Both the position numbers and the translations under genes were made by a program. 44,292 bases of DNA from Candidatus Gastranaerophilales bacterium (GTDB taxonomy: Bacteria > Cyanobacteriota > Vampirovibrionia > Gastranaerophilales > Gastranaerophilaceae). Numbering within the stretch: position 1 is the first letter of the stretch; every line of letters begins with the position of its first letter. The stretch is from NCBI GenBank assembly GCA_944326545.1, contig CALVEH010000012.1:1-44292 (forward strand), given 5' to 3'. Of the stretch, positions 4,088 through 44,292 are shown in pieces. Below the pieces are notes generated by a model. That model worked only from the letters and a program-made list of their open reading frames with translations. It searched no databases and was not told the DNA's origin.

Positions 4088-4186
4088 ACAGTCTTTTTTG
4101 ACACTTCCTTGGTTCTTATAAAACGGCTAAAGTAAAAAATTTACCATGTTTGAATATTTGTTTTATAAATCTTAACAAAAAAGTAT

Positions 4187-4221
4187 AAAAAAAGACAGAG
4201 ATTGTTAAATAATCCTCTGTC
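4187..4221 (-). terminator. Rho-independent terminator of the rhodanese gene
   Basis: On the minus strand GACAGAG (4221-4215) and CTCTGTC (4200-4194) form a 7-bp stem with a 14-nt loop, directly followed by seven Ts. It lies 22 nt past the rhodanese stop codon. Confidence 0.8.
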
Positions 4222-4242
4222 CTCTTATTATATAGATTGAAT

Positions 4243-4659
4243 CTAGCCGGGATAGTCTGAAACGTCATCTTCGACGATTTCAAAATCTCGTTTTTTCCAT
4301 CCTTTAAAACCTCCTACCAGCTCTATGACAGGATAACCTTTTTCTGCAAGCATATAGGCTGTTTTTTTAGCTCTTTGACATAATATAGAATAACAATAGA
4401 TGATGTTTACTTTGTCTTTAGAAAATTTTTCAAGTTGTTCTTCGATTTGTTTAAATGGTATGTGGGTTGCGTATGGAATATGTCCTTTTATGTAGTCATC
4501 GTAATCTCTGACGTCAAAAAGATTGAAGTTTTCAAGACAATTTTTTTCCATTTTTAAAAGTCTGTCAGGGCCTATAGAAAATGTTATTTGATCAAGAAAA
4601 TAGTCACGAGCTTTGCGGGTATCTTTGACCGCATTCAAAAATTCTTTGTCATTCATCAT
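4243..4659 (-). CDS. Rhodanese-like domain protein
   Basis: A 138-residue single-domain protein. The core shows FDVRDYDDYIKGHIPYATHI (CH2A-type motif) around residues 48-67, then VNIIYC with Cys89 at the usual active-site cysteine position, and GGFKGWKKRDF near the end, the typical rhodanese C-terminal signature. The active-site loop after Cys89 is YSILCQRAKK rather than the usual Gly-containing loop, and carries a second Cys (Cys94), so sulfur transfer or a redox or binding role are both possible. An AGGAG lies 9 nt before the chosen ATG; a second ATG follows immediately. The gene has its own terminator, so it is probably monocistronic. Confidence 0.85.
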   Translation of the reverse strand: MMNDKEFLNAVKDTRKARDYFLDQITFSIGPDRLLKMEKNCLENFNLFDVRDYDDYIKGHIPYATHIPFKQIEEQLEKFSKDKVNIIYCYSILCQRAKKTAYMLAEKGYPVIELVGGFKGWKKRDFEIVEDDVSDYPG

Positions 4660-4779
4660 GTGCGATACTCCTTTTTTTGATGAATCTAAGATAAAAGAAA
4701 CTATAGCTTTTTACATTACACAACAGAGCTAAGACACTCAGTTTTAATACGGATAATGTATTAATTGATTTTTTAAAAA

Positions 4780-4800
4780 TGTTAGAATTTGTTTATGGCA
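4780..4800 (+). promoter_or_regulatory. Extended -10 promoter, apparently leaderless start
   Basis: TGTTAGAAT (TG-n-TAGAAT, 4780-4788) is followed by 6 nt and then ATG at 4795. No Shine-Dalgarno sequence is present. Transcription from this -10 would begin at about the start codon. Confidence 0.5.
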
Positions 4801-7293
4801 AGTTTGACAGAAAAAACAAAAAATGTGCTGCCTGCTGATTTTTTCTTTAGAGGCAAATGGCGATCTTATCAACAGAATTTTCTTGATGACATTTCTGTTC
4901 ACATTGACGATAAAAAGCTTAATGTAGTTGCTGCTCCGGGTGCCGGCAAAACCACATTGGGGTTAGAAATTTTAAAACGACTTAACAAGCCTGCTTTGAT
5001 ACTTGCACCTACAATAACTATCAAAAATCAATGGAAACAAAGAATTTTAGAAGGCTTTTTATCCCCTGAAAGCAATACGAATTGGGTGAGTACAAATATA
5101 AAAAATATTTCTGTTGTTACCTCAACTACTTATCAAGCTGCGCACACTCTTTTGAAAAATCCTGATTATGCTGATTTATTTATCGCAGAGTTAAAAAATC
5201 ATGGCGTGAAAACTTTGGTATTGGACGAAGCGCATCATTTACGCACAGAGTGGTATCATTCTCTTGATTATTTGTGTAGAAAGCTTGATGCTCAGGATTT
5301 TACGGTAGTGTCATTAACAGCAACTCCGCCTTATGATGTTTCTCAAAGTGAGTGGAATAATTATCATTCGCTTTGCGGGCCTGTTGATGCTGAGATTTCT
5401 ATTCCTGAATTGGTTAAAAACGGTGATTTGTGTGTTCATCAAGATTTGATATGGTTTTCTGATTTAAGTGCAGAAGAAAAAAAGTGTGTTTTTGATTACG
5501 AAAAAAACAGGCATGATTTTTTTGAATATATTAAAAACGAGGCTGATTTTTCTTATTCTATAAAAACTTCTGCTTTTGTGGCAGATTATGAAAACAATAT
5601 TGAACTTATTTATGATGATACAGATTTTACGATTTCTGTTATTTCTTACTTATTATATCTTGATGATTTAAGTATAGAAGCCAAAATTTTAACGGAGTTT
5701 TTGGCGGTACCTAAAGAAAGCATTCCTAAGTTTGATTATTCTGTTGCAGAGATTTTGTTGAACGGTTTTTTGGGGAAATATAAAAAACATTTTAAAAACG
5801 TACCTCTTATCAAAGGCAAATTAAAAGAATACGGGCTTTTGAAATCATCAACTTCCGTAGATTTAAAGGGTGAAGTTGATTTAAAAAAACTGTATGCAAG
5901 AAGTGTAAATAAACTTGATGCTGTTTTGGATATAACTTTGTTGGAAAACAAACTATTGGGGCAGAATTTACGAGAGGTTGTTCTGCTTGATTATATTGGC
6001 GGTAAAAACTTGCTGGCTTTAAATGTTTTATCAGTATTTGATAAACTGATTAACTCAGTCAGCCAAGGTGTAAAATGTGGTATTTTAACAGGTTCTGTAG
6101 TTGTTATCCCACAATCGGCGGAGGAAATATTATACAAGCTTGTTGAAAAATACAAAATAGATAAAAAAAATGTTTTAACTTCTGCGTTTGATGCTAATCA
6201 TATCAGAGTAGAAACTTACGGTTCTGTGAGTATTGTGCCGGTTATTACAGAACTTTTTTCTTTAGGTGAGATAAATATTCTTGTAGGTACGCAATCTTTG
6301 CTTGGAGAGGGTTGGGACGCGCCTTGTATTAATTCATTAATCATAGCAAGTACCGTAGGCTCGTTTATGTTATCCAATCAAATTAGGGGTAGAGCGTTGA
6401 GAATAGACAGAAACTGTCATAAAAAAGCTGCAAATATTTGGCACCTTGTATCTCTTTCTCAAGGTGATGCAAGTACCGATTTAGATATTGTAGAAAAGAG
6501 ATTCAATACTTTTGAGGGTATAAGTTTTGTTGATGATAAAATTCAAAACGGTATTTTTAGACTTGGATATGATTCTGAAAAGATAGATTCTGCCGATTGT
6601 AAAAGTTTAAATGATTATTCTTCTAAAAAGGCTGAAGAACGTGCTTTTCTTTTTGATAAATGGAAACAGGTTTTTGATGAAAGTGAATTAATAGAATCTA
6701 AGATTCGTCCTCAGGTTTACGAAACGATTCAAACTCATGATTTTAAATTACCTGATATTTTTTATCATGATAGTCGGAATTCCTTGTATAAAGCATTTAG
6801 AAATATATTGGGCAAAGCATATGTTTATTTTACGCAGAAAGATTTTAATGCTATAGCAACAGCTCTTTTAAAATCTATGTGCGAAACTGGAATAATTTTA
6901 TCACCTTATGAAAATATACAAGTGATAAATAAAATCGGTTTTGACTGTAATACAAAGACATCTTCTCATTTTTTAACGGTTTTGAATTGTTCAAATTATG
7001 AAAGAAATCTTTTTGTCAAAACACTGAATGAGATGTTTACTCCACCGAAAAAACAGAGATATATTTTACGAAAAACAGACCCTAAGACAAAACAGGTTAA
7101 GTATCTTTGTGTACCTGAAATTATAGCTTCAAAAAAGAAAAAGGTGACTGTTTTAGAAAAGAATTTAGAGCCTGTTTTAGGTTATATGGAGATTATTTTT
7201 ACCAAAACACCCGAAGGCAGAAAAGAGCTGCTAAAAGCAAGATTTAACGCATTAGAACTGGCAAAATTAAAACAGGGTAAAATCTGGATTTAA
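4795..7293 (+). CDS. DEAD/DEAH-box superfamily 2 helicase
   Basis: An 832-residue SF2 helicase of the XPB/SSL2-like or restriction-helicase type. Visible motifs (counted from ATG 4795): Walker A AAPGAGKTT 46-54, Walker B DEAH 144-147, motif III LTATPP about 171, motif V LLGEGWDAP about 503, motif VI QIRGRALR 529-536. All catalytic motifs are intact, so ATP-dependent DNA or RNA translocation is expected. Between the two RecA lobes there is a long insert (about residues 215-420), and the last 250 residues match no domain I recognise. A TTG at 4789 is in frame, but ATG 4795 is preferred because a -10 box sits exactly 6 nt upstream of it. The end overlaps the converging TPR gene by 4 bp. It stands alone, so a role in defence or repair cannot be decided. 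Confidence 0.85.
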   Translation: MASLTEKTKNVLPADFFFRGKWRSYQQNFLDDISVHIDDKKLNVVAAPGAGKTTLGLEILKRLNKPALILAPTITIKNQWKQRILEGFLSPESNTNWVSTNIKNISVVTSTTYQAAHTLLKNPDYADLFIAELKNHGVKTLVLDEAHHLRTEWYHSLDYLCRKLDAQDFTVVSLTATPPYDVSQSEWNNYHSLCGPVDAEISIPELVKNGDLCVHQDLIWFSDLSAEEKKCVFDYEKNRHDFFEYIKNEADFSYSIKTSAFVADYENNIELIYDDTDFTISVISYLLYLDDLSIEAKILTEFLAVPKESIPKFDYSVAEILLNGFLGKYKKHFKNVPLIKGKLKEYGLLKSSTSVDLKGEVDLKKLYARSVNKLDAVLDITLLENKLLGQNLREVVLLDYIGGKNLLALNVLSVFDKLINSVSQGVKCGILTGSVVVIPQSAEEILYKLVEKYKIDKKNVLTSAFDANHIRVETYGSVSIVPVITELFSLGEINILVGTQSLLGEGWDAPCINSLIIASTVGSFMLSNQIRGRALRIDRNCHKKAANIWHLVSLSQGDASTDLDIVEKRFNTFEGISFVDDKIQNGIFRLGYDSEKIDSADCKSLNDYSSKKAEERAFLFDKWKQVFDESELIESKIRPQVYETIQTHDFKLPDIFYHDSRNSLYKAFRNILGKAYVYFTQKDFNAIATALLKSMCETGIILSPYENIQVINKIGFDCNTKTSSHFLTVLNCSNYERNLFVKTLNEMFTPPKKQRYILRKTDPKTKQVKYLCVPEIIASKKKKVTVLEKNLEPVLGYMEIIFTKTPEGRKELLKARFNALELAKLKQGKIWI

Positions 7294-15349: not shown

Positions 15350-16591
15350 ATGCAAATAAGGGAAGAGGAAGAATACATAACATCAGAATTTTCAAATAAT
15401 CTTGACCATACGTTTGAATGGTTTGATAGCCATTTTACAAACATTTTGGCTGATACATTTGCAGAATTTTGGGGTGTTGAAGCCGATGTAAAACTTGTGA
15501 GCGTCAGTGAAAACGTTAATATATTGGCAGAAAGAGATGAATTTTTTGTTACTCAAATAAGATTAAACAGAGAACTTTCTGTCTTTATAAGATTGTCTAA
15601 AAAACTTGTTAAAGCTTTGTTGGAAAAGATTTTGGGCGACAACGGCAAACCCTTTAATATCGATAAACTGACGGATTTAGAGGCAAAAATTCTTACAGGT
15701 TTTGACGATTTTCTTTATCAAAATTTTTGTGAAATGGTAAAATCAGGCGAGGCTTTGCCTGAAGATAATAATAATTATAACGAATGTAATTTGACATTTT
15801 TCTTAAGAGTTAACAATTTTACTATGGGTAGAATTGTTATTAAACTTCCCGTAATATCAATAGACCCCGTTCCTTTGGAAAACAGTACAGAATCTTTTTC
15901 AATTTCTGATTTTGAAAATTCAAAAGCAGAAGTTGACTTGAGCGTTGGTACAACAAGAATCAGACTCAGTGAGCTTAAACATCTTGAAAAAGACGATATT
16001 GTTGTGCTTGAAAACAGTAAATCTTCTCTTATGCAACTAATCTACAACGGAAAATCTATCCCGATGAGGGTTCTTCCTAACCCTGCAATAATTGTGGATT
16101 ATGACAACAATTTTGATGAAACTTCATACAACTCGAAAGGAGATAAAGCAATGCCCAATTCTGATATGTATAACATGTGGGATACTATTCAGGTTGAAAT
16201 AAATGCTGAATTTGAAAAAGTAAAATTGACTTTAGGAGAATTAAAACAAATCTCAGAAGGTCTTGTTGTTGATATAGGTTCCGTTTATGACAACAAAATT
16301 GATCTTAAAGTTGAAGACAAAATTGTTGCCTCCGGCGAATTAATCATTATAAATGACAGGTACGGAGTTAAAATTAATCAAATATTTACAGAAGAAAAAA
16401 ATCAAGCTTCTCAAAATGCACAGCATTATGAAGAACATCCTGTTGAAGAAGAACAACAACAGCCTTTATATGAAGAACAACCTGTTGAAGAATCTTATCA
16501 GGAACAACCATTAACTCAAAATGAAGAGTCTGAAGTAAATGAAGAAGACTTTGACTACAGTGATTTTGATGTAGATGAAGATGACTTGTAA
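15350..16591 (+). CDS. FliM/FliN-family flagellar C-ring protein with two SpoA domains
   Basis: A 413-residue protein. Residues about 1-185 resemble the middle domain of FliM/FliY (SVFIRLSKKLVKALLEKILG, then LTDLEAKILTGF). Two SpoA/FliN-like beta domains follow: about 195-255 (SVGTTRIRLSELKHLEKDDIV) and about 280-350 (VEINAEFEKVKLTLGELKQI). The last 60 residues are a very acidic Gln/Glu-rich tail ending in DVDEDDL. The architecture fits a C-ring or sorting-platform protein merging FliM and FliN roles; injectisome SctQ also has two SpoA domains, but the adjacent fliO favours a flagellum. A second start inside the frame (ATG near 16151, before the second SpoA domain) could give a free FliN-like product, as in some SctQ proteins. 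AAGGGAT upstream is 15 nt from the ATG. Confidence 0.8.
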   Translation: MQIREEEEYITSEFSNNLDHTFEWFDSHFTNILADTFAEFWGVEADVKLVSVSENVNILAERDEFFVTQIRLNRELSVFIRLSKKLVKALLEKILGDNGKPFNIDKLTDLEAKILTGFDDFLYQNFCEMVKSGEALPEDNNNYNECNLTFFLRVNNFTMGRIVIKLPVISIDPVPLENSTESFSISDFENSKAEVDLSVGTTRIRLSELKHLEKDDIVVLENSKSSLMQLIYNGKSIPMRVLPNPAIIVDYDNNFDETSYNSKGDKAMPNSDMYNMWDTIQVEINAEFEKVKLTLGELKQISEGLVVDIGSVYDNKIDLKVEDKIVASGELIIINDRYGVKINQIFTEEKNQASQNAQHYEEHPVEEEQQQPLYEEQPVEESYQEQPLTQNEESEVNEEDFDYSDFDVDEDDL

Positions 16592-16616
16592 GCAACTAAT
16601 TAGTAAAGGGAAATAA

Positions 16617-17108
16617 ATGGGAACGTATCTGATTAATTTTATAGTTTATACAATGGCAATGGTAGGTTTGCTGTTTATTGGTGTTATGGTTTATAAAAAA
16701 ACTATGCTTGGTAATAATTCTGCCCAAAATTCAAACGGTTTAAAGGTGGAAAATGCTTTAAGTTTATCGCCGAGAAAAACAATATACGTTGTTAAAGCAG
16801 GCAATGAAAAATTTTTAATTGCTGCCGATACAGAAAGAACAACTTTTCTTGCAAAACTTAACAATGATGAAAAGCTTGCCACAGTTGATGTTGAACCTGT
16901 TAAAACTTTTAAGGAAGAAATAGCTTTTTCTGCTCCTTTAAAAGCAAAAGAGGAAAAAACATACAGTATTGAAAAGGGAAATCAAAAATCTTCCAATGTA
17001 GATTATACAGAAGTTATGAGAGTGCTTGATGATAGCACTAACCTTAAAAGGCCTGTTATGAGAGAACTTTTAAGAAAACTTGATGAAAGAGTAACAACAA
17101 AAGACTAA
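16617..17108 (+). CDS. fliO: Flagellar biosynthesis protein FliO
   Basis: A 163-residue protein with one N-terminal membrane segment (about residues 5-26) followed by the FliO pattern LSLSPRKTIYVVKAGNEKFL with later LLAKLN-like sequence, and a charged cytoplasmic tail. FliO helps assemble the FliP/FliQ/FliR export gate. Position directly before fliP supports it; FliO is absent from injectisomes, so it argues for a flagellar system. AAGGGAAATAA precedes the ATG. Confidence 0.75.
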   Translation: MGTYLINFIVYTMAMVGLLFIGVMVYKKTMLGNNSAQNSNGLKVENALSLSPRKTIYVVKAGNEKFLIAADTERTTFLAKLNNDEKLATVDVEPVKTFKEEIAFSAPLKAKEEKTYSIEKGNQKSSNVDYTEVMRVLDDSTNLKRPVMRELLRKLDERVTTKD

Positions 17109-17139
17109 TAACTAAAATAAAAATAAGGGATATAAAATA

Positions 17140-17781
17140 ATGGAAAGTATATTAAAGGATATGAATCCTGTTTTACAGATGTTGTTTGTAATGACGGTAT
17201 TTTCAATGTTACCGTTAATCTTCACCTGTATGACAAGTTTTTTGAGATATACAATTGTATTTTCTATGTTAAAACAAGCTCTTGGTACTCAACAAGTTCC
17301 ACCTGGGATTGTACTTGTCGGTTTATCAATGATTTTGACAATTTATACTATGAATCCTGTTTTTAGTAAAATGTGGGAGATGGGGTCTGTTCCTTATCAA
17401 AAAAACGGTGACATAGTTGCTGCTGTAGCCGAAGGCTCTAAACCGTTAAAAGAGTTTATGATGAAGCAGACAAGACAATCTGATATGACTTTCTTTATAC
17501 AGTTGTCAGGTGCTCCAAAACCTAAAACTCCTGATGATATAACAATATGGCAAGTGGCTCCGGCTTACATTGTTAGTGAACTTAAGACAGCCTTTGAGAT
17601 AGGTTTTGTTATATATGTTCCGTTTATTGTACTTGACCTTGTTGTTGCGAACGTGCTGTTGGCGTTAGGTATGTTTATGTTATCGCCAACTATTATTTCT
17701 CTGCCGTTTAAGCTGCTTATATTTATAGCGGTTGACGGATGGAGCATGATTGTACACGGTCTTGTTGCAAGCTTTAACTGA
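17140..17781 (+). CDS. fliP: Flagellar type III export pore protein FliP
   Basis: A 213-residue polytopic membrane protein carrying FliP signatures: FLRYTIVFSMLKQALGTQQVPPG near the start and FEIGFVIYVPFIVLDLVVANVLLALGM with LPFKLLIFIAVDGW near the end. FliP forms the pentameric core of the export gate in the inner membrane. It lacks the cleavable signal peptide found in many FliP proteins, so it is shorter and close in size to SctR. AAGGGATATAAAATA precedes the ATG. Confidence 0.95.
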   Translation: MESILKDMNPVLQMLFVMTVFSMLPLIFTCMTSFLRYTIVFSMLKQALGTQQVPPGIVLVGLSMILTIYTMNPVFSKMWEMGSVPYQKNGDIVAAVAEGSKPLKEFMMKQTRQSDMTFFIQLSGAPKPKTPDDITIWQVAPAYIVSELKTAFEIGFVIYVPFIVLDLVVANVLLALGMFMLSPTIISLPFKLLIFIAVDGWSMIVHGLVASFN

Positions 17782-17822
17782 TAAAGAGTTAGATTAATGA
17801 GTTCTAAATAAAGGGATAAAAT

Positions 17823-18320
17823 ATGTTAGAAGTATTACTTGAATATATGGGCAAAGGGCTTATTACAATGCTGATGATATCTATGCCTTGCGTACTTGTT
17901 GCAGCAGGTGTGGGTCTTGTTGTTGGTATTTTGCAGGCTGTTACTCAGGTTCAAGAACAAACTATTGCTGCTGCACCTAAGATTCTCGCCGTGTTTTTGG
18001 TGCTGATGATAATGGGTATGGGATACATAAAGCTTTTGACAAACCTTTTGTTGGAAGGTTATCAAATGGCATTTAACCATATTCCTGCAACAGAGAGTTA
18101 TGTACTTTCTGCTAATTACCATAAATATACACGTCCTTTTGATGCAGAATTTAAACAAAGTGCAACAAGATTTGATAAACAGGAAATCGGTGATATTATG
18201 AGAAATCCCGGTAAAATTCCTTTTATAGATTACAACTCTAAGACAAAACATTATCCGTCTGACAGAATGCCAAATCCGACACCAAATCTTATTGAACGTA
18301 ATGCAATTATGAACAGATAG
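17823..18320 (+). CDS. fliQ: Flagellar export protein FliQ with a long C-terminal extension
   Basis: Residues 1-88 are a normal FliQ: two membrane hairpins with the signature VGLVVGILQAVTQVQEQTI and APKILAVFLVLMIMG. FliQ is usually about 89 residues, but this reading frame continues to 165. The extra 75 residues are polar, rich in Lys, Asn, Pro and Tyr (TRFDKQEIGDIMRNPGKIPF), without a membrane segment, and would hang on the cytoplasmic or periplasmic side of the gate. AAAGGGATAAAAT precedes the ATG; the next gene starts 8 nt after the stop. Confidence 0.92.
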   Translation: MLEVLLEYMGKGLITMLMISMPCVLVAAGVGLVVGILQAVTQVQEQTIAAAPKILAVFLVLMIMGMGYIKLLTNLLLEGYQMAFNHIPATESYVLSANYHKYTRPFDAEFKQSATRFDKQEIGDIMRNPGKIPFIDYNSKTKHYPSDRMPNPTPNLIERNAIMNR

Positions 18321-18328
18321 AGGTATAA

Positions 18329-18691
18329 ATGAAAAAATTACTTGCTATATTTTGTTTGTTAATCGCTTCGACAGGTTCTTCAGCTTTGGCTCTTGAACCT
18401 CAAAAGACAATTAATTTACACTCTGATGGGGTGTATATTCTTAGCATTGAAAAGAGACCGATTGATATTCAAGTGACAAATCCGAGAATTCTTGAGGTTA
18501 CTTCTACAAGTGATATATTTTCTACAAGTTCACAGCTTGTTATGACAACTCAAGAGGAAGGTATTTCTTATATCACATATAAACAGGGGAATGTCACTTA
18601 TACAATTAAGGTTTTAATTGATAATCAGCAAGATGTTGATTCTTCTGTAATTGAATTGGATTCTATAAAGGACATTACAAAAGATAAATGA
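18329..18691 (+). CDS. Exported 'pilus assembly protein N-terminal' (secretin N-like) domain protein
   Basis: A 120-residue protein with a clear signal peptide (MKKLLAIFCLLIASTGSSALA) and then one beta-rich domain: SDGVYILSIEKRPIDIQVTNPRILEVTS followed by LVMTTQEEGISYITYKQGNV. This matches the domain found at the N-terminus of CpaC/RcpA-type pilus secretins, which docks secretins or binds peptidoglycan-side partners. Here it is free-standing, periplasmic, and placed between fliQ and fliR; it overlaps fliR by 4 bp (ATGA), so it is translated with the export gate. A role in building or anchoring the flagellar rod or ring is an inference from place only. Confidence 0.7.
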   Translation: MKKLLAIFCLLIASTGSSALALEPQKTINLHSDGVYILSIEKRPIDIQVTNPRILEVTSTSDIFSTSSQLVMTTQEEGISYITYKQGNVTYTIKVLIDNQQDVDSSVIELDSIKDITKDK

Positions 18692-19470
18692 TAGAAACTG
18701 TATTAGAAGCATTTCCTAAATATTTTCCAGAAATAAATGCGGCTCTTGGCGGCGGTATATTTATCTTTGCGCGTGTAATAGGCTTTATAAGATTTGCCCC
18801 TGTATTGAACAGAAAAGAAATCCCCGGCGTGGTTAAGCTCGCATTTGCTTTGATTCTTACAATAATTTTAATGATGACAGTTCATACAGGGCCTGTACCT
18901 TCCGGTTCGTCATTGATTTTAGGTTTGATTCTTAACGTAGTTGGAGGAATGTTGGTAGGCTTTATTGCCAATTGTATAGTTTTAGCAATTTCTGCTGCAG
19001 GGGATATGATTAATATGCAGATGGGTCTTTCTTCTGCAATGGTTTTGGACCCTACAGTCGGTACTCAGGTCTCTATATTGGGGAACTTTTTTGGCTTGCT
19101 TGCTGTTATTTTATTTATAGATGTCGGTGGATTGTACTGGCTAATCAATGCTTTGCACAGAAGTTTTGAGATTTTTCCAATTTATGCAAACGCTATTCCT
19201 ATGGATAGACTCGTAAATAAAGAATATCTTGTTACTATTACATCAAATGTTTTGTATATAGGTTTGCAGATAGCTTCTCCTGTTTTATTGGCAACGCTGG
19301 GTCAAGACTTAATCTTGGGTATAATTTCTAAAACTGCTCCACAGGTTAACGTTTTTCAATTAAGCTTCCTGTTTAAACCTGTATTGGGTGCAGCAATTCT
19401 TTTATGGATTATGCCTGTAATTGTTAATGTGATTAACGATTACTTTATGTCTTTTGCAAAAATATTTTAA
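18688..19470 (+). CDS. fliR: Flagellar export protein FliR
   Basis: A 260-residue polytopic membrane protein. FliR signatures include FARVIGFIRFAPVLNRKEIP near the N-terminus, ISAAGDMINMQMGLSSAMVLDP in the centre and LATLGQDLILGIISKTAPQVNVF toward the end. It completes the FliP5Q4R1 gate. It overlaps the secretin-N-like gene by 4 bp and, at its end, the converging pth gene by 4 bp. flhB and flhA are not in the window. Confidence 0.95.
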   Translation: MIETVLEAFPKYFPEINAALGGGIFIFARVIGFIRFAPVLNRKEIPGVVKLAFALILTIILMMTVHTGPVPSGSSLILGLILNVVGGMLVGFIANCIVLAISAAGDMINMQMGLSSAMVLDPTVGTQVSILGNFFGLLAVILFIDVGGLYWLINALHRSFEIFPIYANAIPMDRLVNKEYLVTITSNVLYIGLQIASPVLLATLGQDLILGIISKTAPQVNVFQLSFLFKPVLGAAILLWIMPVIVNVINDYFMSFAKIF

Positions 19471-30061: not shown

Positions 30062-30100
30062 ACCTATATAGGTAATGTTCATGCTATAATCCATTTATGA
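30062..30100 (+). promoter_or_regulatory. Palindrome plus extended -10, leaderless start of the RM gene
   Basis: TGCTATAAT (TG-n-TATAAT; -10 at 30085-30090) ends 6 nt before the ATG at 30097, with no Shine-Dalgarno. The perfect palindrome ACCTATATAGGT (30062-30073) lies at the -35 position, a likely operator. Confidence 0.6.
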
Positions 30101-33100
30101 CAGAAAAGTATCTTGATGGAATTATCAGAAAGTTTAAGACTGGAAAGACTACAGAACACAGCTTTAGGGGTGACTTACAGGACTTTATTGAAAGAACCGT
30201 TACAGGTGTTCAGGCTATCAATGAACCAACAAGACAAAAATGCGGTGCTCCTGATTATATAATACAGAAAAAGAACATTCCTATAGGATACATTGAAGCT
30301 AAGGACATTGATAAAAATCTTGATGTTGTTGAAAAGTCCGAACAGCTCGACAGATACAGAGCAAGCCTCGATAACCTGATACTTACCAATTATCTTGAAT
30401 TTCGTTTCTTTGTGAATGGGGAGCATGTTGATACCGTTAAAGTTGCTGATATTGTAAACGGCAAGATTAAAGTTTATGAGAAAGAGTATCAGAAACTGAT
30501 TGACCATATCCGCAATTTCTGTGACTATCAAGGGCAGACTATAAAATCACCTAAACAGCTTGCAAACCTTATGGCTCAAAAAGCGGTTATGATACGTGAT
30601 GTTATTATTAATGCTCTTGAGTGTGATTGCGCAGGCTCTTTATCTAGCCAGAGAAACGCTTTTAAACAAATCCTGTTACACGATTTAACCGACCATACAT
30701 TTGCCGATATGTACGCTCAAACGATAGCATACGGCTTGTTTGTAGCAAGACTGAATGATACTACACTTGATGACTTCACAAGACAGGAAGCAAGGGAACT
30801 TGTATCAAAGAATAATCCGTTTCTAAGGCAGTTGTTTGATTATATATCCGGTGCAAACCTTGATGATAACCTTGTATGGATTGTCGATGATTTGGTTGAA
30901 ATCTTTAGAGCAGTTGACCTGAATAAACTCTTGAAGAACTACGGTAGAACGACTCAGATGTCTGACCCGTTTCTGCATTTTTATGAAACATTCCTTGAAA
31001 GCTACGACAAAGTAAACAAGGAAAAGAGAGGCGTATATTATACACCTCAGCCTGTTGTAAAGTTTATTGTCTCAGCTGTAGACAGTATTTTGAAAACAGA
31101 ATTCAACCTGTCTCATGGTCTGGCTGATGATACAACTATAAAACACACACGCACTCTATATTATGAGAAAAAGAAGAAGAAAGTTAAGGGTGAAACAGTA
31201 TATGAAGATGTACCCGTTACAACAGATGAGAATGTGTACAAGGTGCAAATCCTTGACCCTGCTACAGGTACGGGAACATTTTTAGCTGAAACAATCCGTA
31301 AGATATATTCCTATTTTGTAAACCAGCAGGGGATATGGTCTCAGTATGTTGATAATGCTCTGATACCCAGATTAAACGGATTTGAAATAATGATGACGCC
31401 TTATGTAATGTGTCATCTTAAACTTGACCTGTTATTACAGGAAACAGGCTACACAACAACGAAACAGACAAATAGGTTTAATGTTTATCTGACAAACGCA
31501 CTGGAGAAAGATGAAACAACAAAATACCCGTTGTTTGACTGGTTATCGGAAGAAGCACGCTATGCAGGCATGATAAAGTCTGAAAAGCCTATTATGGTGG
31601 TGCTGGGCAATCCGCCTTATAGTGTCAGCAGCTGCAACAAGAATGACTACATAGATGAACTTATGGAAGTTTATAAACAGGATTTAAACGAAAGAAACAT
31701 ACAGCCTCTTTCTGATGATTACATCAAGTTTATCCGTATGGGTGAAAGTTTTATTGAGAAAAACAATGAGGGCGTACTTGCTTACATTTCAAACAACAGT
31801 TTCTTAGACGGTGTAATCCATAGACAGATGAGAAAACACCTTATGCAAACGTTCGATAAAATCTACATCTTAGACCTGCATGGCAATGCTAAGAAAAAGG
31901 AAACCTCACCTGACGGCTCAAAAGATGAGAATGTGTTTAATATTCAGCAGGGTGTAAGTATAAATATCTTTGTTAAAACAGGTAAGAAAAACCCTGATGA
32001 ATTGGCGAAAGTGTATCATACAGAGTTGTTCGGAGAAAGAGAGAAGAAATACGAATACCTGAACGCTAATGACCTATCAACAGCAGGCTATAAAGAACTG
32101 ACTCCGACAGAACCGTATTATTTCTTTGTGCCTAAAGATTTCAGCGTACAAGAGGAGTATGATAAAGGGTTTAAAATTGATGAGATGATGTTAATTTCTT
32201 CAAGCGGTATTACAACACATCATGACAATGAATTAGTCTCTTTTCATATGTTTAACACTCCATACAACTACAAATATCTATATCGCCCATTTGATATAAG
32301 ATATATAGATTATGACCTAACAAAAGTAGAGCGTGCAAGATATACAGTAATGAAGCATTTATTGAGTCATAATAATATTTCCTTGATAACAACAAGACAA
32401 TATGCCGAGGATACATTGTTCAATCACGTATATGTAAGCTCTAATATAGTAGATAGAAGAATAACGTTAAGTAATAAAGGTGCAGCTAATATCTTTCCGC
32501 TATACCTTTATGAAGAAAACTCAAACCAGACATCATTCTTTGACCAGAACCGTAAGCCTAACTTGAATATGGATATTGTGCATGAACTGGAACAGAAACT
32601 GGGCTTAACCTTTACTCCTGAAAAGGAAGATACAACAGGAACTTTTGCTCCTATAGATATATTGGATTATATATACGGCGTTCTGCACTCTAACAAGTAT
32701 AGAAACAAGTACAAGGAGTTTTTAAAGATTGATTTTCCACGCATTCCATACCCAGAGAATGCTGACTATTTCTTTAAAGTTGCTCAACTTGGCAAACAAC
32801 TGAGGGAAATACACCTGCTTGAGTCTCCTATAGTAAATGAATTTGTAACCTCATATCCTGTAGGCGGTGATAATGAGGTTGTAAAGCCTGAATACAAAGA
32901 CAACAAGGTGTATATCAATAAGACCCAGTATTTTGATAACGTGCCTGAAATTGCATGGAATTTCTATATAGGCGGTTATCAGCCTGCACAAAAATGGCTC
33001 AAAGACCGCAAAGGTAGAATCCTAAGCTATGAAGAGGTTATGCACTACCAGAAAATCATAAAAGCCCTCTTAGAAACCCACACCCTCATGCAACAGATTG

Positions 33101-33120
33101 ATGAAATTATTGAGGTGTAA
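30097..33120 (+). CDS. Single-chain restriction-modification enzyme (type IIG / ISP-like: nuclease, N6-adenine methylase, specificity domain)
   Basis: A 1007-residue protein. An N-terminal PD-(D/E)XK nuclease is visible as PDYIIQKKN...GYIEAKD (Asp53, Glu67, Lys69). The methyltransferase core has SAM motif I DPATGTGTFL from residue 387 and catalytic NPPY at 505-508, indicating N6-adenine methylation. Residues about 640-1007 match the type ISP specificity domain (YRPFDIRYIDYD, then YIYGVLHSNKYRNKYKEFLKIDFPRIPYP). There is no helicase domain, so it is unlike full LlaGI-type ISP enzymes and closer to type IIG. It would cut foreign DNA and protect host and element. Residues look intact. No separate methylase or S gene is needed. 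Its end overlaps the converging 305-residue gene by 14 bp. Confidence 0.88.
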   Translation: MTEKYLDGIIRKFKTGKTTEHSFRGDLQDFIERTVTGVQAINEPTRQKCGAPDYIIQKKNIPIGYIEAKDIDKNLDVVEKSEQLDRYRASLDNLILTNYLEFRFFVNGEHVDTVKVADIVNGKIKVYEKEYQKLIDHIRNFCDYQGQTIKSPKQLANLMAQKAVMIRDVIINALECDCAGSLSSQRNAFKQILLHDLTDHTFADMYAQTIAYGLFVARLNDTTLDDFTRQEARELVSKNNPFLRQLFDYISGANLDDNLVWIVDDLVEIFRAVDLNKLLKNYGRTTQMSDPFLHFYETFLESYDKVNKEKRGVYYTPQPVVKFIVSAVDSILKTEFNLSHGLADDTTIKHTRTLYYEKKKKKVKGETVYEDVPVTTDENVYKVQILDPATGTGTFLAETIRKIYSYFVNQQGIWSQYVDNALIPRLNGFEIMMTPYVMCHLKLDLLLQETGYTTTKQTNRFNVYLTNALEKDETTKYPLFDWLSEEARYAGMIKSEKPIMVVLGNPPYSVSSCNKNDYIDELMEVYKQDLNERNIQPLSDDYIKFIRMGESFIEKNNEGVLAYISNNSFLDGVIHRQMRKHLMQTFDKIYILDLHGNAKKKETSPDGSKDENVFNIQQGVSINIFVKTGKKNPDELAKVYHTELFGEREKKYEYLNANDLSTAGYKELTPTEPYYFFVPKDFSVQEEYDKGFKIDEMMLISSSGITTHHDNELVSFHMFNTPYNYKYLYRPFDIRYIDYDLTKVERARYTVMKHLLSHNNISLITTRQYAEDTLFNHVYVSSNIVDRRITLSNKGAANIFPLYLYEENSNQTSFFDQNRKPNLNMDIVHELEQKLGLTFTPEKEDTTGTFAPIDILDYIYGVLHSNKYRNKYKEFLKIDFPRIPYPENADYFFKVAQLGKQLREIHLLESPIVNEFVTSYPVGGDNEVVKPEYKDNKVYINKTQYFDNVPEIAWNFYIGGYQPAQKWLKDRKGRILSYEEVMHYQKIIKALLETHTLMQQIDEIIEV

Positions 33121-39061: not shown

Positions 39062-40703
39062 CACAAAAAAAATCGTTGTAGGCTACGGCAGAGTAAGTTC
39101 TGCTGAGCAGGCTAACAGTGGGCTTAGTCTTAACATGCAGCGAGAACAATGTGAACAAAAAGCAACCAAAGATGGTTATACATTTGTTTACTTTGAAGAC
39201 GCAGGGAAAACAGGCTCTAATACTAACAGAAAAGGACTTAGAGCAATGCTTAAATACGTAAAGGAACACCGTAACGAAGTTGCCTATGTTGTTGTATGGA
39301 AACTGGACAGACTCTCTCGTTGCCTTGAAGATTTTTTCGCTGAGATATTAAAACCCATCAAGAAATACGGTTGTACTATTGCAAGTATCATGGAAAACTT
39401 TGACGATATAAGTAAGGTAAAAAAAGTTCTTATAGGAGTTTATATCGGGCAGGCAGAGGATGAGCTTGACAATATTAAGGATAGGACAAGTTCAGTATTA
39501 AGAAACCGAGCTGAAAAGGGATACAAACTCGGTAAAGCTCCGATAGGGTATATCAATACAAGAGATGAACACCGACATGGTATAATTAAACCAGACCCAG
39601 ATAAGACTCCTCATATCAAGCGTTGTTTTGAACTGTATGGAACAGGAGTATTTGCATACGAAAAGTTAGGTAAAGAACTTGCTAAATATGGGTTTGTTGA
39701 CAGTAAAGGAAACCCATACTCAAAGAAGCGCATTCAAGATATTCTCAAGAACCCCGTATACATCGGAAAAGTTACCCATGGCGATGATATTTTTGATGGT
39801 GTACACGAACCTATTGTGTCAGAAGAATTGTTCTACAGAGTTCAACTCTTGTTAAAAGGTGAGGATGTAAAAAGACCTAAAGGACTCGTTTACACATATT
39901 CAAACTTTATTAAATGTGCGAAATGCGGTTACTCAATGGTAGCCGTAACTAAGCGAGGTGAACACAATAGTGGTACATATATTTATTACCACTGTACTAA
40001 CTACACGAAAGCTCATGCTAGAGAAAAGAATATTAACGAAAATCTGATAGATGAAGCAATACAGGAAGTAATTGACAGCTTTGATATTACAGAAAAAGAG
40101 ATAAAATGTATAAAGAAGCAGATAAATAACGCTATTACAGACCTGAAACAATATGAACATAAGTCTATTGATGATTTAAAGAAAGCATATGACCAGATAG
40201 TAGATGACATTACTGAAAAGTTAACTCAGAAGAATACTGATAAACTAGGCATTAGTGAATCCACACGTGCTGAGGTGTTACAGAAATTGGTAGCCCGTAA
40301 AGACGATATAAAACGTGAGATTGACAATCTCACTGAAAATTCTAAAGATACCGTGAAACGAATAAGTATTCTGATTGATTTTGCCAACCGTCTTCCTGAA
40401 CTTTATTTGAAAGCAACTTTGGATGAGAAAAGGTTAATACTCAATACTATAATTGAAAGTATTACCTATAATGAAGATGATAACACTCTGTCAGTTAAGT
40501 TAAGACCTGTATTTGAACATTTGAGACAGTTAAAACTCAAACAGAAGCAGGAGTTTAAAGAAGAGCTAGAAACATTGACAGGAACCCTTAAAACTCGCTC
40601 AGGAAGTGCAAAACAGGCTCTTGAAAATAATCGATTAGATTTAAGCAATATTGCAGTGATTGGAACCCGCTGTAATTTAACATACAGAACAAGATTAAAT
40701 TAA
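39045..40703 (+). CDS. Large serine recombinase (element integrase)
   Basis: A 552-residue protein. Catalytic domain 1-150 with Ser18 in GYGRVSSAEQ, VVWKLDRLSRCLEDF; recombinase domain about 165-270 (KAPIGYINTR, KRIQDILKNPVYIGKVTH); zinc ribbon about 285-325 with CAKCG and YYHC (the fourth Cys is absent, the position is taken by His or lost); coiled coil about 340-450. It integrates and excises the element using short att sites. AAAGGAG precedes the ATG. The last codons, after VIGT, lie beyond the candidate attR core and would differ in the circular form (NRT then stop). Confidence 0.95.
   Translation: MTKQSNTKKIVVGYGRVSSAEQANSGLSLNMQREQCEQKATKDGYTFVYFEDAGKTGSNTNRKGLRAMLKYVKEHRNEVAYVVVWKLDRLSRCLEDFFAEILKPIKKYGCTIASIMENFDDISKVKKVLIGVYIGQAEDELDNIKDRTSSVLRNRAEKGYKLGKAPIGYINTRDEHRHGIIKPDPDKTPHIKRCFELYGTGVFAYEKLGKELAKYGFVDSKGNPYSKKRIQDILKNPVYIGKVTHGDDIFDGVHEPIVSEELFYRVQLLLKGEDVKRPKGLVYTYSNFIKCAKCGYSMVAVTKRGEHNSGTYIYYHCTNYTKAHAREKNINENLIDEAIQEVIDSFDITEKEIKCIKKQINNAITDLKQYEHKSIDDLKKAYDQIVDDITEKLTQKNTDKLGISESTRAEVLQKLVARKDDIKREIDNLTENSKDTVKRISILIDFANRLPELYLKATLDEKRLILNTIIESITYNEDDNTLSVKLRPVFEHLRQLKLKQKQEFKEELETLTGTLKTRSGSAKQALENNRLDLSNIAVIGTRCNLTYRTRLN
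40659..40667. other. Candidate right attachment site (attR core ATTGGAACC)
   Basis: Same 9 bp as at 28978-28986, same orientation. It lies in the last codons of the recombinase gene, 36 bp before its stop. Confidence 0.55.
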
Positions 40704-40717
40704 CTATGAGATGGAGA

Positions 40718-41614
40718 TTAGAAATATAAAGAATATTCACTTGTATCAACTAGTTCTAAAAATGTAATTATACTTGGACCAACCTTAAAAGCCCATTCAT
40801 TAATATATGCATTATCATTGCCATAAAATTTTGGGAACCAACCTTTCGGATCATCATATCTTTGATAACAGAATCTATCATCACCTCTCATTAATAAGTT
40901 TGTAATAGAACCACTATATATTTGAGAATTTCGATCAAAAAACAAGCCTCTTTTATAATCTCTGAATGAATCTGAATACTTGAATTGTATTATTTGTTTT
41001 GTATCAGCATCAAATTGGATACATATACAGTTAATATCTTTGAGAAGTTTTACAACTTTTAAAGCGGTTGCGGTGAAGGATGTATCATATTTTTTCGATA
41101 TATTTTCAACTATTTGTTTAAAATCAGAACCATACTGTTCTATTTTACCAATAGTACTTGATGGAATTAATAATTCAGAGGCAAAAGTATTTGCTTCATA
41201 TTCTTTAGTAAATAAATATTTCTTAGAATGTATGTTGCTTTTGTCTAGCATTAACTGCTGTGTTAAATAATCGGCATGTGCAGGAATAAAACAATGACCT
41301 AATTCATGTGCAAGCGTAAATCGGCAATGCCTTCTTTTAGTAGTATCTGTTATATCCTGAAATGAACTTCCATAAAATTTTGAATTTATATAAATTCGTC
41401 GTTGACCGTCTTTTGAGAGTTCAGTAATTGCATATTCAGAATTATCTACAAATTTTTCATCTGTAAACTTACAAGTAATGCCTAATTCTTCAATGTATTC
41501 TAATATTTCAAATACATTTATTGGTATTATTTCTGTACCAACTGTATCAGATAACAACTTGATTGCACAATTAGATACGTCTACATGTGGAAGAAAATAA
41601 GGATTAGTTGTCAT
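40718..41614 (-). CDS. ImmA/IrrE-family metallopeptidase
   Basis: A 298-residue protein with zinc motif HELGH at residues 103-107 (FTLAHELGHCFIPAHADYL) and the third-ligand helix EYEANTFASELLIPSS about 30 residues on. ImmA proteases cut the paired repressor to induce mobile elements or stress genes. The C-terminal 100 residues (about 200-298) form an extra domain of unknown role (GSITNLLMRGDDRFCYQRYD). The ATG overlaps the end of the XRE gene by 11 bp, so this is an ImmR-ImmA pair. Confidence 0.92.
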   Translation of the reverse strand: MTTNPYFLPHVDVSNCAIKLLSDTVGTEIIPINVFEILEYIEELGITCKFTDEKFVDNSEYAITELSKDGQRRIYINSKFYGSSFQDITDTTKRRHCRFTLAHELGHCFIPAHADYLTQQLMLDKSNIHSKKYLFTKEYEANTFASELLIPSSTIGKIEQYGSDFKQIVENISKKYDTSFTATALKVVKLLKDINCICIQFDADTKQIIQFKYSDSFRDYKRGLFFDRNSQIYSGSITNLLMRGDDRFCYQRYDDPKGWFPKFYGNDNAYINEWAFKVGPSIITFLELVDTSEYSLYF

Positions 41615-42671: not shown

Positions 42672-43628
42672 TTATAACAAATCATTCAGCAAATTCATGC
42701 ACTTGATTTTTTGTTGAAGATTTGCTCTGCCGTAAACATTTAGAGTAAACGAAACATTCTTATGCCCCAATATTTCAGACAGGGATTTTATGTCAAAATC
42801 TGATATTTCTATTGCTCTAATTGCAAATGTATGCCGAAGTTCGTGGAATTTCACAGGTATCAATTTATGCTTCTTCACAAATCTTGAGAAAAACTGCCTG
42901 TAAACACGCGGTTCGGTTGGTTTTATTCGACCTGTTAAAAAGAAGTGATTAGGATTAGCTGTATAAAATTTTTTGATAATATTCATCAATAAAGAAGGAA
43001 CAGGGATTGTTCTTTCAGAACTCTTCGTCTTTGGCGAGCCTATGTGGATATAAGATTTCTTTTTTGATTTATCATAAATTCGCTGAACAGTTTTGTTTAC
43101 AGAAATTGTTTTATCAGTCAAAGAAATATCAGACATCTGAAGTCCGCAAAGCTCACCTATTCTTAATCCTGTAAATAAAGTCAATAATATTCCGACTGAT
43201 TTTCTTGTTAAGTTCAAATATATAGCCTGAATTAGCTTTTGTTCTTCCTCTTTTGACAATGCAACAACCTTTTTTATTTTTAAATCTTTAGGATATTCAA
43301 TTAAATCCCAGTTTAGAGCTTCAATTACTTTCGATCTATACGCAAAGTTTAAAGTAAGCCTTAATACAAGAATAATATCTCGAATTGTTTTAACAGTTAA
43401 ACCTCCTGCATTATCCAGCCGCCCATTATAAAATAAATAAAATATAAATTCTTGAATTTTAGACTCTGTTATATCACAGATTTTTTGTAATCCAAAATAC
43501 GGAATCAAATGATTTTCTACAATAAGCAAAAATCCGGCATAAGTTGACGGGGTTACTAAAGTTTGTTTTTCTTTTAGCCATAAATGTACGAGTATCGCAA
43601 AAGTAGTGTTTTTGGTTAAATTTTTCAT
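42672..43628 (-). CDS. Tyrosine recombinase
   Basis: A 318-residue site-specific recombinase with SAM-like N-terminal domain (about 1-110) and catalytic domain. Active-site residues are all present: Arg in LFTGLRIGELCGL, Lys in the SPKTKSSE turn, HELRHTFAIRA (His-x-x-Arg), His in LGHKNVSFTLNVYGR and its Tyr. Start ATG 43628 has GGAGG 8 nt upstream; an ATG 39 codons further upstream is in frame but runs into the hsdS sequence. It lies next to an hsdS cassette, head to head, an arrangement that fits an invertase of type I specificity genes. Confidence 0.92.
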   Translation of the reverse strand: MKNLTKNTTFAILVHLWLKEKQTLVTPSTYAGFLLIVENHLIPYFGLQKICDITESKIQEFIFYLFYNGRLDNAGGLTVKTIRDIILVLRLTLNFAYRSKVIEALNWDLIEYPKDLKIKKVVALSKEEEQKLIQAIYLNLTRKSVGILLTLFTGLRIGELCGLQMSDISLTDKTISVNKTVQRIYDKSKKKSYIHIGSPKTKSSERTIPVPSLLMNIIKKFYTANPNHFFLTGRIKPTEPRVYRQFFSRFVKKHKLIPVKFHELRHTFAIRAIEISDFDIKSLSEILGHKNVSFTLNVYGRANLQQKIKCMNLLNDLL

Positions 43629-43735
43629 AATAAATACCTCCATATAGTTATTAAATAAGGTATTTAGAAGATTTTCTGACCTCAAGTTATCATCTTGGGG
43701 GTGAATGCAGTAATGAGTGTAAAAAAGATTCTCTA

Positions 43736-44292
43736 AACGTTCCAAAACTACGATTTAAGGGATATAATGATGAGTGGAAACATTATAGGCTGAAAGATAT
43801 CGTGCAAATTTATGATGGAACTCACCAAACTCCTAATTATATTGATGATGGAATAAAATTTGTAAGTGTTGAAAATATTAATAACCTTGATAAAACAAAT
43901 AAATATATATCAAGAGAGGATTATGAAAAAGATTTCAAAATAAAACCTGAAATAAATGATATACTAATGACTAGAATTGGTGATATTGGAACCCCTGCAA
44001 TAATAAATACAAATGAAAGATACGCTTATTATGTTAGTTTGGCTTTATTAAAATCAAATTATGCAATTTTGTCTCCAAAGTTTTTGATTCAGCGAATTTC
44101 GTCAGAACAATTTCAGCATGAACTATGGAAAAGAACTTTGCATGTTGCATTTCCAAAGAAAATCAATAAATATGAGATTGGAGAATGTAATGTCTTTATA
44201 CCACCCTTACCCGAGCAAGAAAAAATTGCAGCATTTTTAACATTAATTGATAAAAAAATAGAAAAACAGAAAGAGCTTATAGAACTCCTCAA
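43736..44292 (+). CDS. hsdS: Type I restriction specificity subunit (HsdS), 5'-less and cut by window end
   Basis: The frame reads VPKLRFKGYNDEWKHYRLKD, the standard opening of an HsdS target-recognition half, and includes one TRD (DIVQIYDGTHQTPNYI; ILMTRIGDIG) and the conserved linker PPLPEQEKIAAFLTLIDKKI with a following coiled coil. There is no ATG, GTG or TTG start between the last stop (43652) and the homology start, so it is a silent cassette or gene fragment. The preserved frame argues for a storage cassette activated by recombination. The end is outside the window. Confidence 0.8.

What the first reader, a model, noticed from the sequence alone, without database searches (positions are those of the whole stretch)
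42672..44292. Probable phase-variable type I restriction locus with a silent hsdS cassette
An in-frame hsdS sequence without any start codon begins at the conserved VPKLRF segment, next to a complete tyrosine recombinase in the opposite direction. In known shufflons, silent hsdS copies lack the 5' end and swap by inversion at repeats at this point.
Basis: partly seen in the sequence, partly recalled or inferred. Interest (0 to 1): 0.65.

Follow-up and report, generated by a model that had tools for sequence, protein, structure and literature searches.

The report
Silent cassette of switchable restriction system
The window ends inside a silent spare copy of a gene that tells a bacterial restriction enzyme which DNA sequence to recognise, next to the enzyme that probably flips it into the active gene; complete relatives show a DNA-shuffling defence system of a known kind, here in gut Gastranaerophilales.

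Summary
The window is the whole contig C12 and stops inside hsdS. A complete tyrosine recombinase (42672-43628, minus) lies head-to-head with the first half of an hsdS (43739-44290, plus) that is in frame but has no ATG/GTG/TTG before residue ~22. The prediction "extend right: hsdR, hsdM, active hsdS" cannot be checked in this genome: no matching hsdM or hsdR is in its assembly. It holds in relatives. Gastranaerophilales and Clostridia genomes with the same recombinase carry hsdM (and hsdR), an active hsdS, silent hsdS copies and the recombinase, with perfect inverted repeats of 81 and 93 bp in the closest relative with both copies. One relative's active hsdS starts at the same 16-bp core (window 43680-43695) and is 97% identical to the window's silent 5' end over 99 bp. 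Another carries the window's silent recognition domain in active position. Two genome pairs with 97-99.98% identical flanks differ by permuted hsdS halves. Inversion in this strain is inferred. It is a new member of a known kind (inverting type I R-M), new for this lineage as far as I found, with a recombinase and core site shared across phyla.

The parts
42672..43628 (-). Tyrosine recombinase (318 aa), the probable hsdS invertase; ATG at 43626-43628 behind GGAGG
   Evidence: PF00589 E 1.6e-22 and PF14659 E 1.7e-12; 55 homologues at the same place next to hsdS
43680..43695 (+). Core CCTCAAGTTATCATCT, probable recombination site (arms CTCAAG/CTTG around a 7-bp spacer, inferred)
   Evidence: Outer edge of identity between active and silent hsdS; same 16-mer once per hsdS copy on opposite strands in relatives; CCTCAAGTAACGGTCT at this place in most Clostridia
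43680..43778 (+). 5' repeat of the silent hsdS
   Evidence: 97% identical over 99 bp to the 5' end of an active hsdS in G220, starting exactly at the core
43739..44290 (+). Silent hsdS, first half (VPKLRF, first recognition domain, start of central region), no start codon
   Evidence: PF01420 E 6.2e-13; 96.6% identical over 551 bp to an active hsdS in L020
44213..44292 (+). Beginning of the central conserved repeat, in which the contig stops
   Evidence: 85-90% identical to central repeats of active and silent hsdS in L020-L027; 93-bp perfect inverted repeat in L020 overlapping this place

Best explanation
This is the recombinase end of an inverting type I restriction-modification locus (EcoR124-like by the HsdR of its relatives). 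The fragment is a silent hsdS cassette. In complete relatives it lies opposite to the expressed hsdS, the last gene of hsdR-hsdM-(RhuM/Fic)-hsdS. The neighbouring tyrosine recombinase most likely inverts DNA between a 16-bp core at the 5' end of each hsdS copy (43680-43695 here). This puts a different first recognition domain behind the only start codon and ribosome-binding site and so changes the sequence that is methylated and cut. A second exchange point in the central conserved repeat lets the second recognition domain be swapped independently, by the same enzyme or by homologous recombination. Shown: anatomy, missing start codon, repeats and active/silent exchange in relatives, assembly breaks at both repeats. 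Inferred: that this recombinase acts at this core, that inversion is active in this strain, and that this strain has the rest of the locus.
For: Silent copy without start, divergent complete recombinase. Constant layout in relatives. Active copies beside hsdM have ATG or GTG with a Shine-Dalgarno before the core; most silent copies have no start codon with a Shine-Dalgarno there. Perfect 81-bp and 93-bp inverted repeats in L020. Active hsdS in G220 shares 99 bp from the core on. The window's silent recognition domain is active in L020. Permuted halves between L036/L037 and L029/L030. Contigs break at the two repeats: 25 of 51 on the hsdS side within 740 bp against 5 of 51 on the other side; G161's two contigs end in the same 77 bases.
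Against: Own assembly lacks hsdR, hsdM and the active hsdS. No reads, so no direct sight of inversion. Recombinase activity on the core is inferred from position and conservation. Some silent copies in relatives hold a GTG or TTG near the motif.
Confidence: 0.9

Rival explanations
1. Orphan remnant: this strain kept only the recombinase end of a formerly complete locus, so nothing switches here now.
For: No hsdR or hsdM of this kind in a genome rated 99.95% complete.
Against: The hsdS frame is intact and 96.6% identical to an active gene. The contig stops at the repeat where G161 also breaks, and G161's remaining genes sit on a 7.2-kb contig that binning could easily lose.
Confidence: 0.08
2. 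The copies exchange only by homologous recombination between repeats; the neighbouring recombinase serves another purpose, such as integration of the island.
For: Both the 5' and the central repeats are long enough for homologous recombination in some loci; the central repeat has no evident core.
Against: The recombinase sits at the silent hsdS 5' end in all loci with enough flank; the outer edge of the 5' repeat is precise, and the perfect 5' repeat is only 26 bp in L026.
Confidence: 0.1
3. The fragment is an expressed hsdS from a non-standard start (CTG or GTG 43802), not a silent copy.
For: An in-frame CTG lies just 5' of the core, and start-like codons occur there in some relatives.
Against: No promoter-like site on the plus strand in 43600-43900. 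Active copies use a separate upstream leader with GTG or ATG and a Shine-Dalgarno. GTG 43802 would cut off the conserved N-terminus.
Confidence: 0.03

Closest known systems
Pneumococcal cod / SpnD39III / Spn556II locus with PsrA (PMC4948785, PMC7096588)
   Same: hsdR-hsdM-hsdS with silent hsdS copies, a tyrosine recombinase in the locus, and inverted repeats of several lengths; only the copy after hsdM is expressed.
   Different: There the 15-bp PsrA repeat IR1 swaps the 3' half of hsdS; here the probable core lies at the 5' end and swaps the first domain. Here the recombinase is at the end of the array, divergent from the last silent copy, and Gastranaerophilales loci have a RhuM/Fic gene between hsdM and hsdS.
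Inverting type I systems with duplicated hsdS from REBASE (PMC7394358)
   Same: Second hsdS on the opposite strand without a start codon, inverted repeats, recombinase often present.
   Different: Gastranaerophilales were not named in the passages read; that survey searched REBASE entries.
Gut inverton group 145, subunit S genes (PMC11892184)
   Same: Subunit S genes overlapping invertible DNA next to tyrosine recombinases, with repeats conserved between phyla, from sequencing reads.
Mycoplasma pulmonis hsd loci (Dybvig and Yu 1994, from own knowledge and cited in PMC11892184)
   Same: DNA inversion in hsdS genes changes type I specificity.
   Different: Recombinase and site not compared here.

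Membership tests
[quoted passage not shown]
   No ATG/GTG/TTG between the upstream stop and 43802; PF01420 match
[quoted passage not shown]
   Complete tyrosine recombinase 42672-43628; same position in relatives
[quoted passage not shown]
   Absent from the own assembly but the contig ends inside hsdS; present in relatives L027, G161 and G220 (families)
[quoted passage not shown]
   Second copy not in the own assembly; perfect 81-bp and 93-bp inverted repeats in relative L020 and repeats in twelve further loci
[quoted passage not shown]
   No reads; proxy only: permuted halves in near-identical genome pairs
PsrA-type recombinase of the pneumococcal cod locus | Closer sequence kinship to PsrA than the general tyrosine-recombinase fold | not tested
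   PsrA sequence was not compared; NCBIfam gives only general recombinase matches below cut-off
Type I R-M, EcoR124-like (type IC) | HsdR with the EcoR124-type C-terminal domain and standard HsdM | tested here: met
   In relative L027, not in the window: PF12008 E 2e-54, TIGR00348 and TIGR00497 over cut-off

The most novel reading that the evidence does not exclude
One recombinase lineage with its own core (CTCAAG-N7-CTTGAG type) is a specificity-switching module shared by Gastranaerophilales, Clostridia and gut Alphaproteobacteria. It acts only on the first recognition domain and leaves the second to a separate mechanism at the central repeat; in Gastranaerophilales it is coupled to a RhuM/Fic gene that overlaps the hsdS start.
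Probability: 0.35. Interest if true: 0.45.

Novelty: new member of a known kind. Interest (0 to 1): 0.32.

Why it matters
It extends specificity-switching restriction to Gastranaerophilales, a gut lineage for which I found no earlier report of phase variation in the held library. It gives a short, precise candidate core site that can be tested directly. It also suggests why such loci are under-counted in metagenome assemblies: about half of the related contigs stop at these repeats, so hsdM/hsdR and the recombinase end up on different contigs.

Tried and rejected
Second hsdS copy in the own genome: only an hsdS on C3 at 28% identity, part of a different R-M operon with a 787-aa fused M protein. 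Own-genome hsdM/hsdR: absent. Overlap of the contig end with another contig: none with up to 3 mismatches. Same genus: none of the 22 other genomes carries the recombinase at E <= 1e-40. Plasmid collection: only relatives under 60% identity. Hairpin at the core: weak, z -1.8. Promoter on the plus strand for the silent copy: none. Serine-codon test for DNA-level constraint at the core: confused by a register shift in my motif, not used. Recombinase translation was out of frame and not used.

Full report
What is in the window. The window is the complete contig C12 (44,292 bp) of a 2.19-Mb, 19-contig genome. Its nearest relatives by recombinase are Candidatus Gastranaerophilales MAGs. At its right end a tyrosine recombinase (42672-43628, minus) passes the Pfam cut-offs for PF14659 and PF00589 and has the R, K, HxxR, H and Y signature in its translation. 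Divergent from it, an hsdS frame runs from 43655 to the contig end without a stop; 43736-44290 matches Methylase_S (E 6e-13). The first ATG/GTG/TTG in that frame is GTG at 43802, inside the recognition domain.

The own genome does not contain the rest. PF02384 finds three N6-methylase places, none a standard hsdM of this system. The hsdM and hsdR of a complete relative find only a 30%-identity piece and nothing, respectively. The fragment has no second copy, and the last 50 bases occur nowhere else with up to 3 mismatches.

Relatives. A scan of the species genomes with the recombinase gave 58 loci: Gastranaerophilales, many Clostridia, a few Erysipelotrichaceae and three gut Alphaproteobacteria (a record labelled Saccharibacteria may be a mis-binned contig). 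Where flanks are long enough the layout is constant: hsdM, active hsdS (+), silent hsdS (-) meeting it tail-to-tail, sometimes more copies, then the recombinase divergent from the last silent copy. L027 is nearly complete: hsdR 93-2879, hsdM 2883-4457, RhuM/Fic 4460-5443, hsdS 5436-6674 (GTG start overlapping the Fic gene), silent hsdS ending at 6667, and a recombinase that runs to the contig end (families).

The inverted repeats. In L020, the closest relative with both hsdS copies, active and silent hsdS share perfect inverted repeats of 81 bp at their 5' ends and 93 bp in the central conserved region. The outer edge of the 5' repeat is the same in the Gastranaerophilales-type loci: CCTCAAGTTATCATCT, on opposite strands in active and silent copies, window 43680-43695. 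In most Clostridia the same place reads CCTCAAGTAACGGTCT. Both fit short inverted arms around a 7-bp spacer, the usual form of a tyrosine-recombinase core (general knowledge; arms and spacer are inferred here). In L026 the perfect 5' repeat shrinks to 26 bp, as expected if the exchange is site-specific.

The predicted active partner. A family-level search (383 genomes, 12 with matches including this one) led to a 4,283-bp contig in G220 with the end of hsdR, hsdM, RhuM/Fic and an hsdS start GAGGAGGAGTTTGTGACT. From CCTCAAG on it is 97% identical to window 43680-43778 for 99 bp; upstream of the core the two are unrelated, and the contig stops where the recognition domain would begin. The window's silent recognition domain is found in active position in L020, 96.6% identical over 551 bp.

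Rearrangement. L036/L037 and L029/L030 have flanks 97-99.98% identical, yet their hsdS halves are permuted and inverted with breakpoints at the 5' and central repeats. Assemblies break at these places: 25 of 51 loci end 0-740 bp on the hsdS side of the recombinase, clustered at 60-220 bp and 540-740 bp, against 5 of 51 on its other side. In G161 a 415-kb contig and a 7.2-kb contig end in the same 77 bases of the central repeat; the small contig holds hsdR, hsdM, RhuM/Fic and the active half. The window's contig stops in the same repeat; the equivalent small contig was probably lost in binning (inference).

Mechanism. Shown: anatomy and silent cassette in the window; repeats and exchange in relatives. 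Inferred: the recombinase recombines the 5' cores and so replaces recognition domain 1 behind the sole start; the central repeat allows a second exchange, by the recombinase or by homologous recombination. In pneumococcus PsrA strictly drives its 15-bp repeat, while the longer repeats still recombine, at lower rate, without PsrA (PMC4948785, PMC7096588).

Place among known systems. It works like, and by anatomy belongs with, inverting type I R-M systems (PMC7394358, PMC4948785). What could not be tested in this strain is marked in the membership table. A read-based study of gut invertons describes subunit S invertons with tyrosine recombinases shared between phyla (PMC11892184), possibly the same lineage. 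No paper in the held library joins Gastranaerophilales with phase variation. The quick recombinase tree keeps Gastranaerophilales and Alphaproteobacteria as single groups apart from Bacillota, so it shows no recent transfer between phyla.

Verdict. The finding is real and well explained. It is a new member of a known kind, with interest mainly in the lineage, the conserved core and the way it fragments assemblies.

Noticed in passing
40671-40727: A 48-57 bp sequence at the end of the large serine recombinase gene recurs downstream of the hsdS recombinase in eight Gastranaerophilales-type loci (90-96% identical), with variable genes between the two. It may be an island edge or attachment site; it also occurs in two other same-genus genomes without the recombinase.
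   Followed up: partly
L020 4832-8200; L018 1753-5349; L022 2396-5995: The slot between the hsdS recombinase and that repeat holds different large genes: a PDC-S53 candidate defence protein in L020, a ~1200-aa protein in L018, L022 and L069, and HTH, ImmA-like, GIY-YIG and Cys-rich genes in the window. It looks like a variable defence cargo slot.
   Followed up: partly
30097-33120: A 1007-aa type IIG/ISP restriction-methylation enzyme (PADLOC REase_MTase_IIG, Pfam Type_ISP_C), about 10 kb from the hsdS cassette.
   Followed up: no
L027 4460-5443; L020 186-1202; L103 5525-6508: A RhuM-Fic fusion gene (PADLOC PDC-S23) sits between hsdM and hsdS and overlaps the hsdS start by a few bases in Gastranaerophilales loci. 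Its N-terminal half differs between genomes while the Fic half is conserved.
   Followed up: no
15350-19470: A cluster with FliP- and FliR-like export genes, flagellar or type III-like, in a gut Gastranaerophilales genome.
   Followed up: no
L025, L026, L027 (ends): Three near-identical MAG contigs all stop about 150 bp past the matched part of the recombinase, whose C-terminus diverges there into a repetitive stretch.
   Followed up: no
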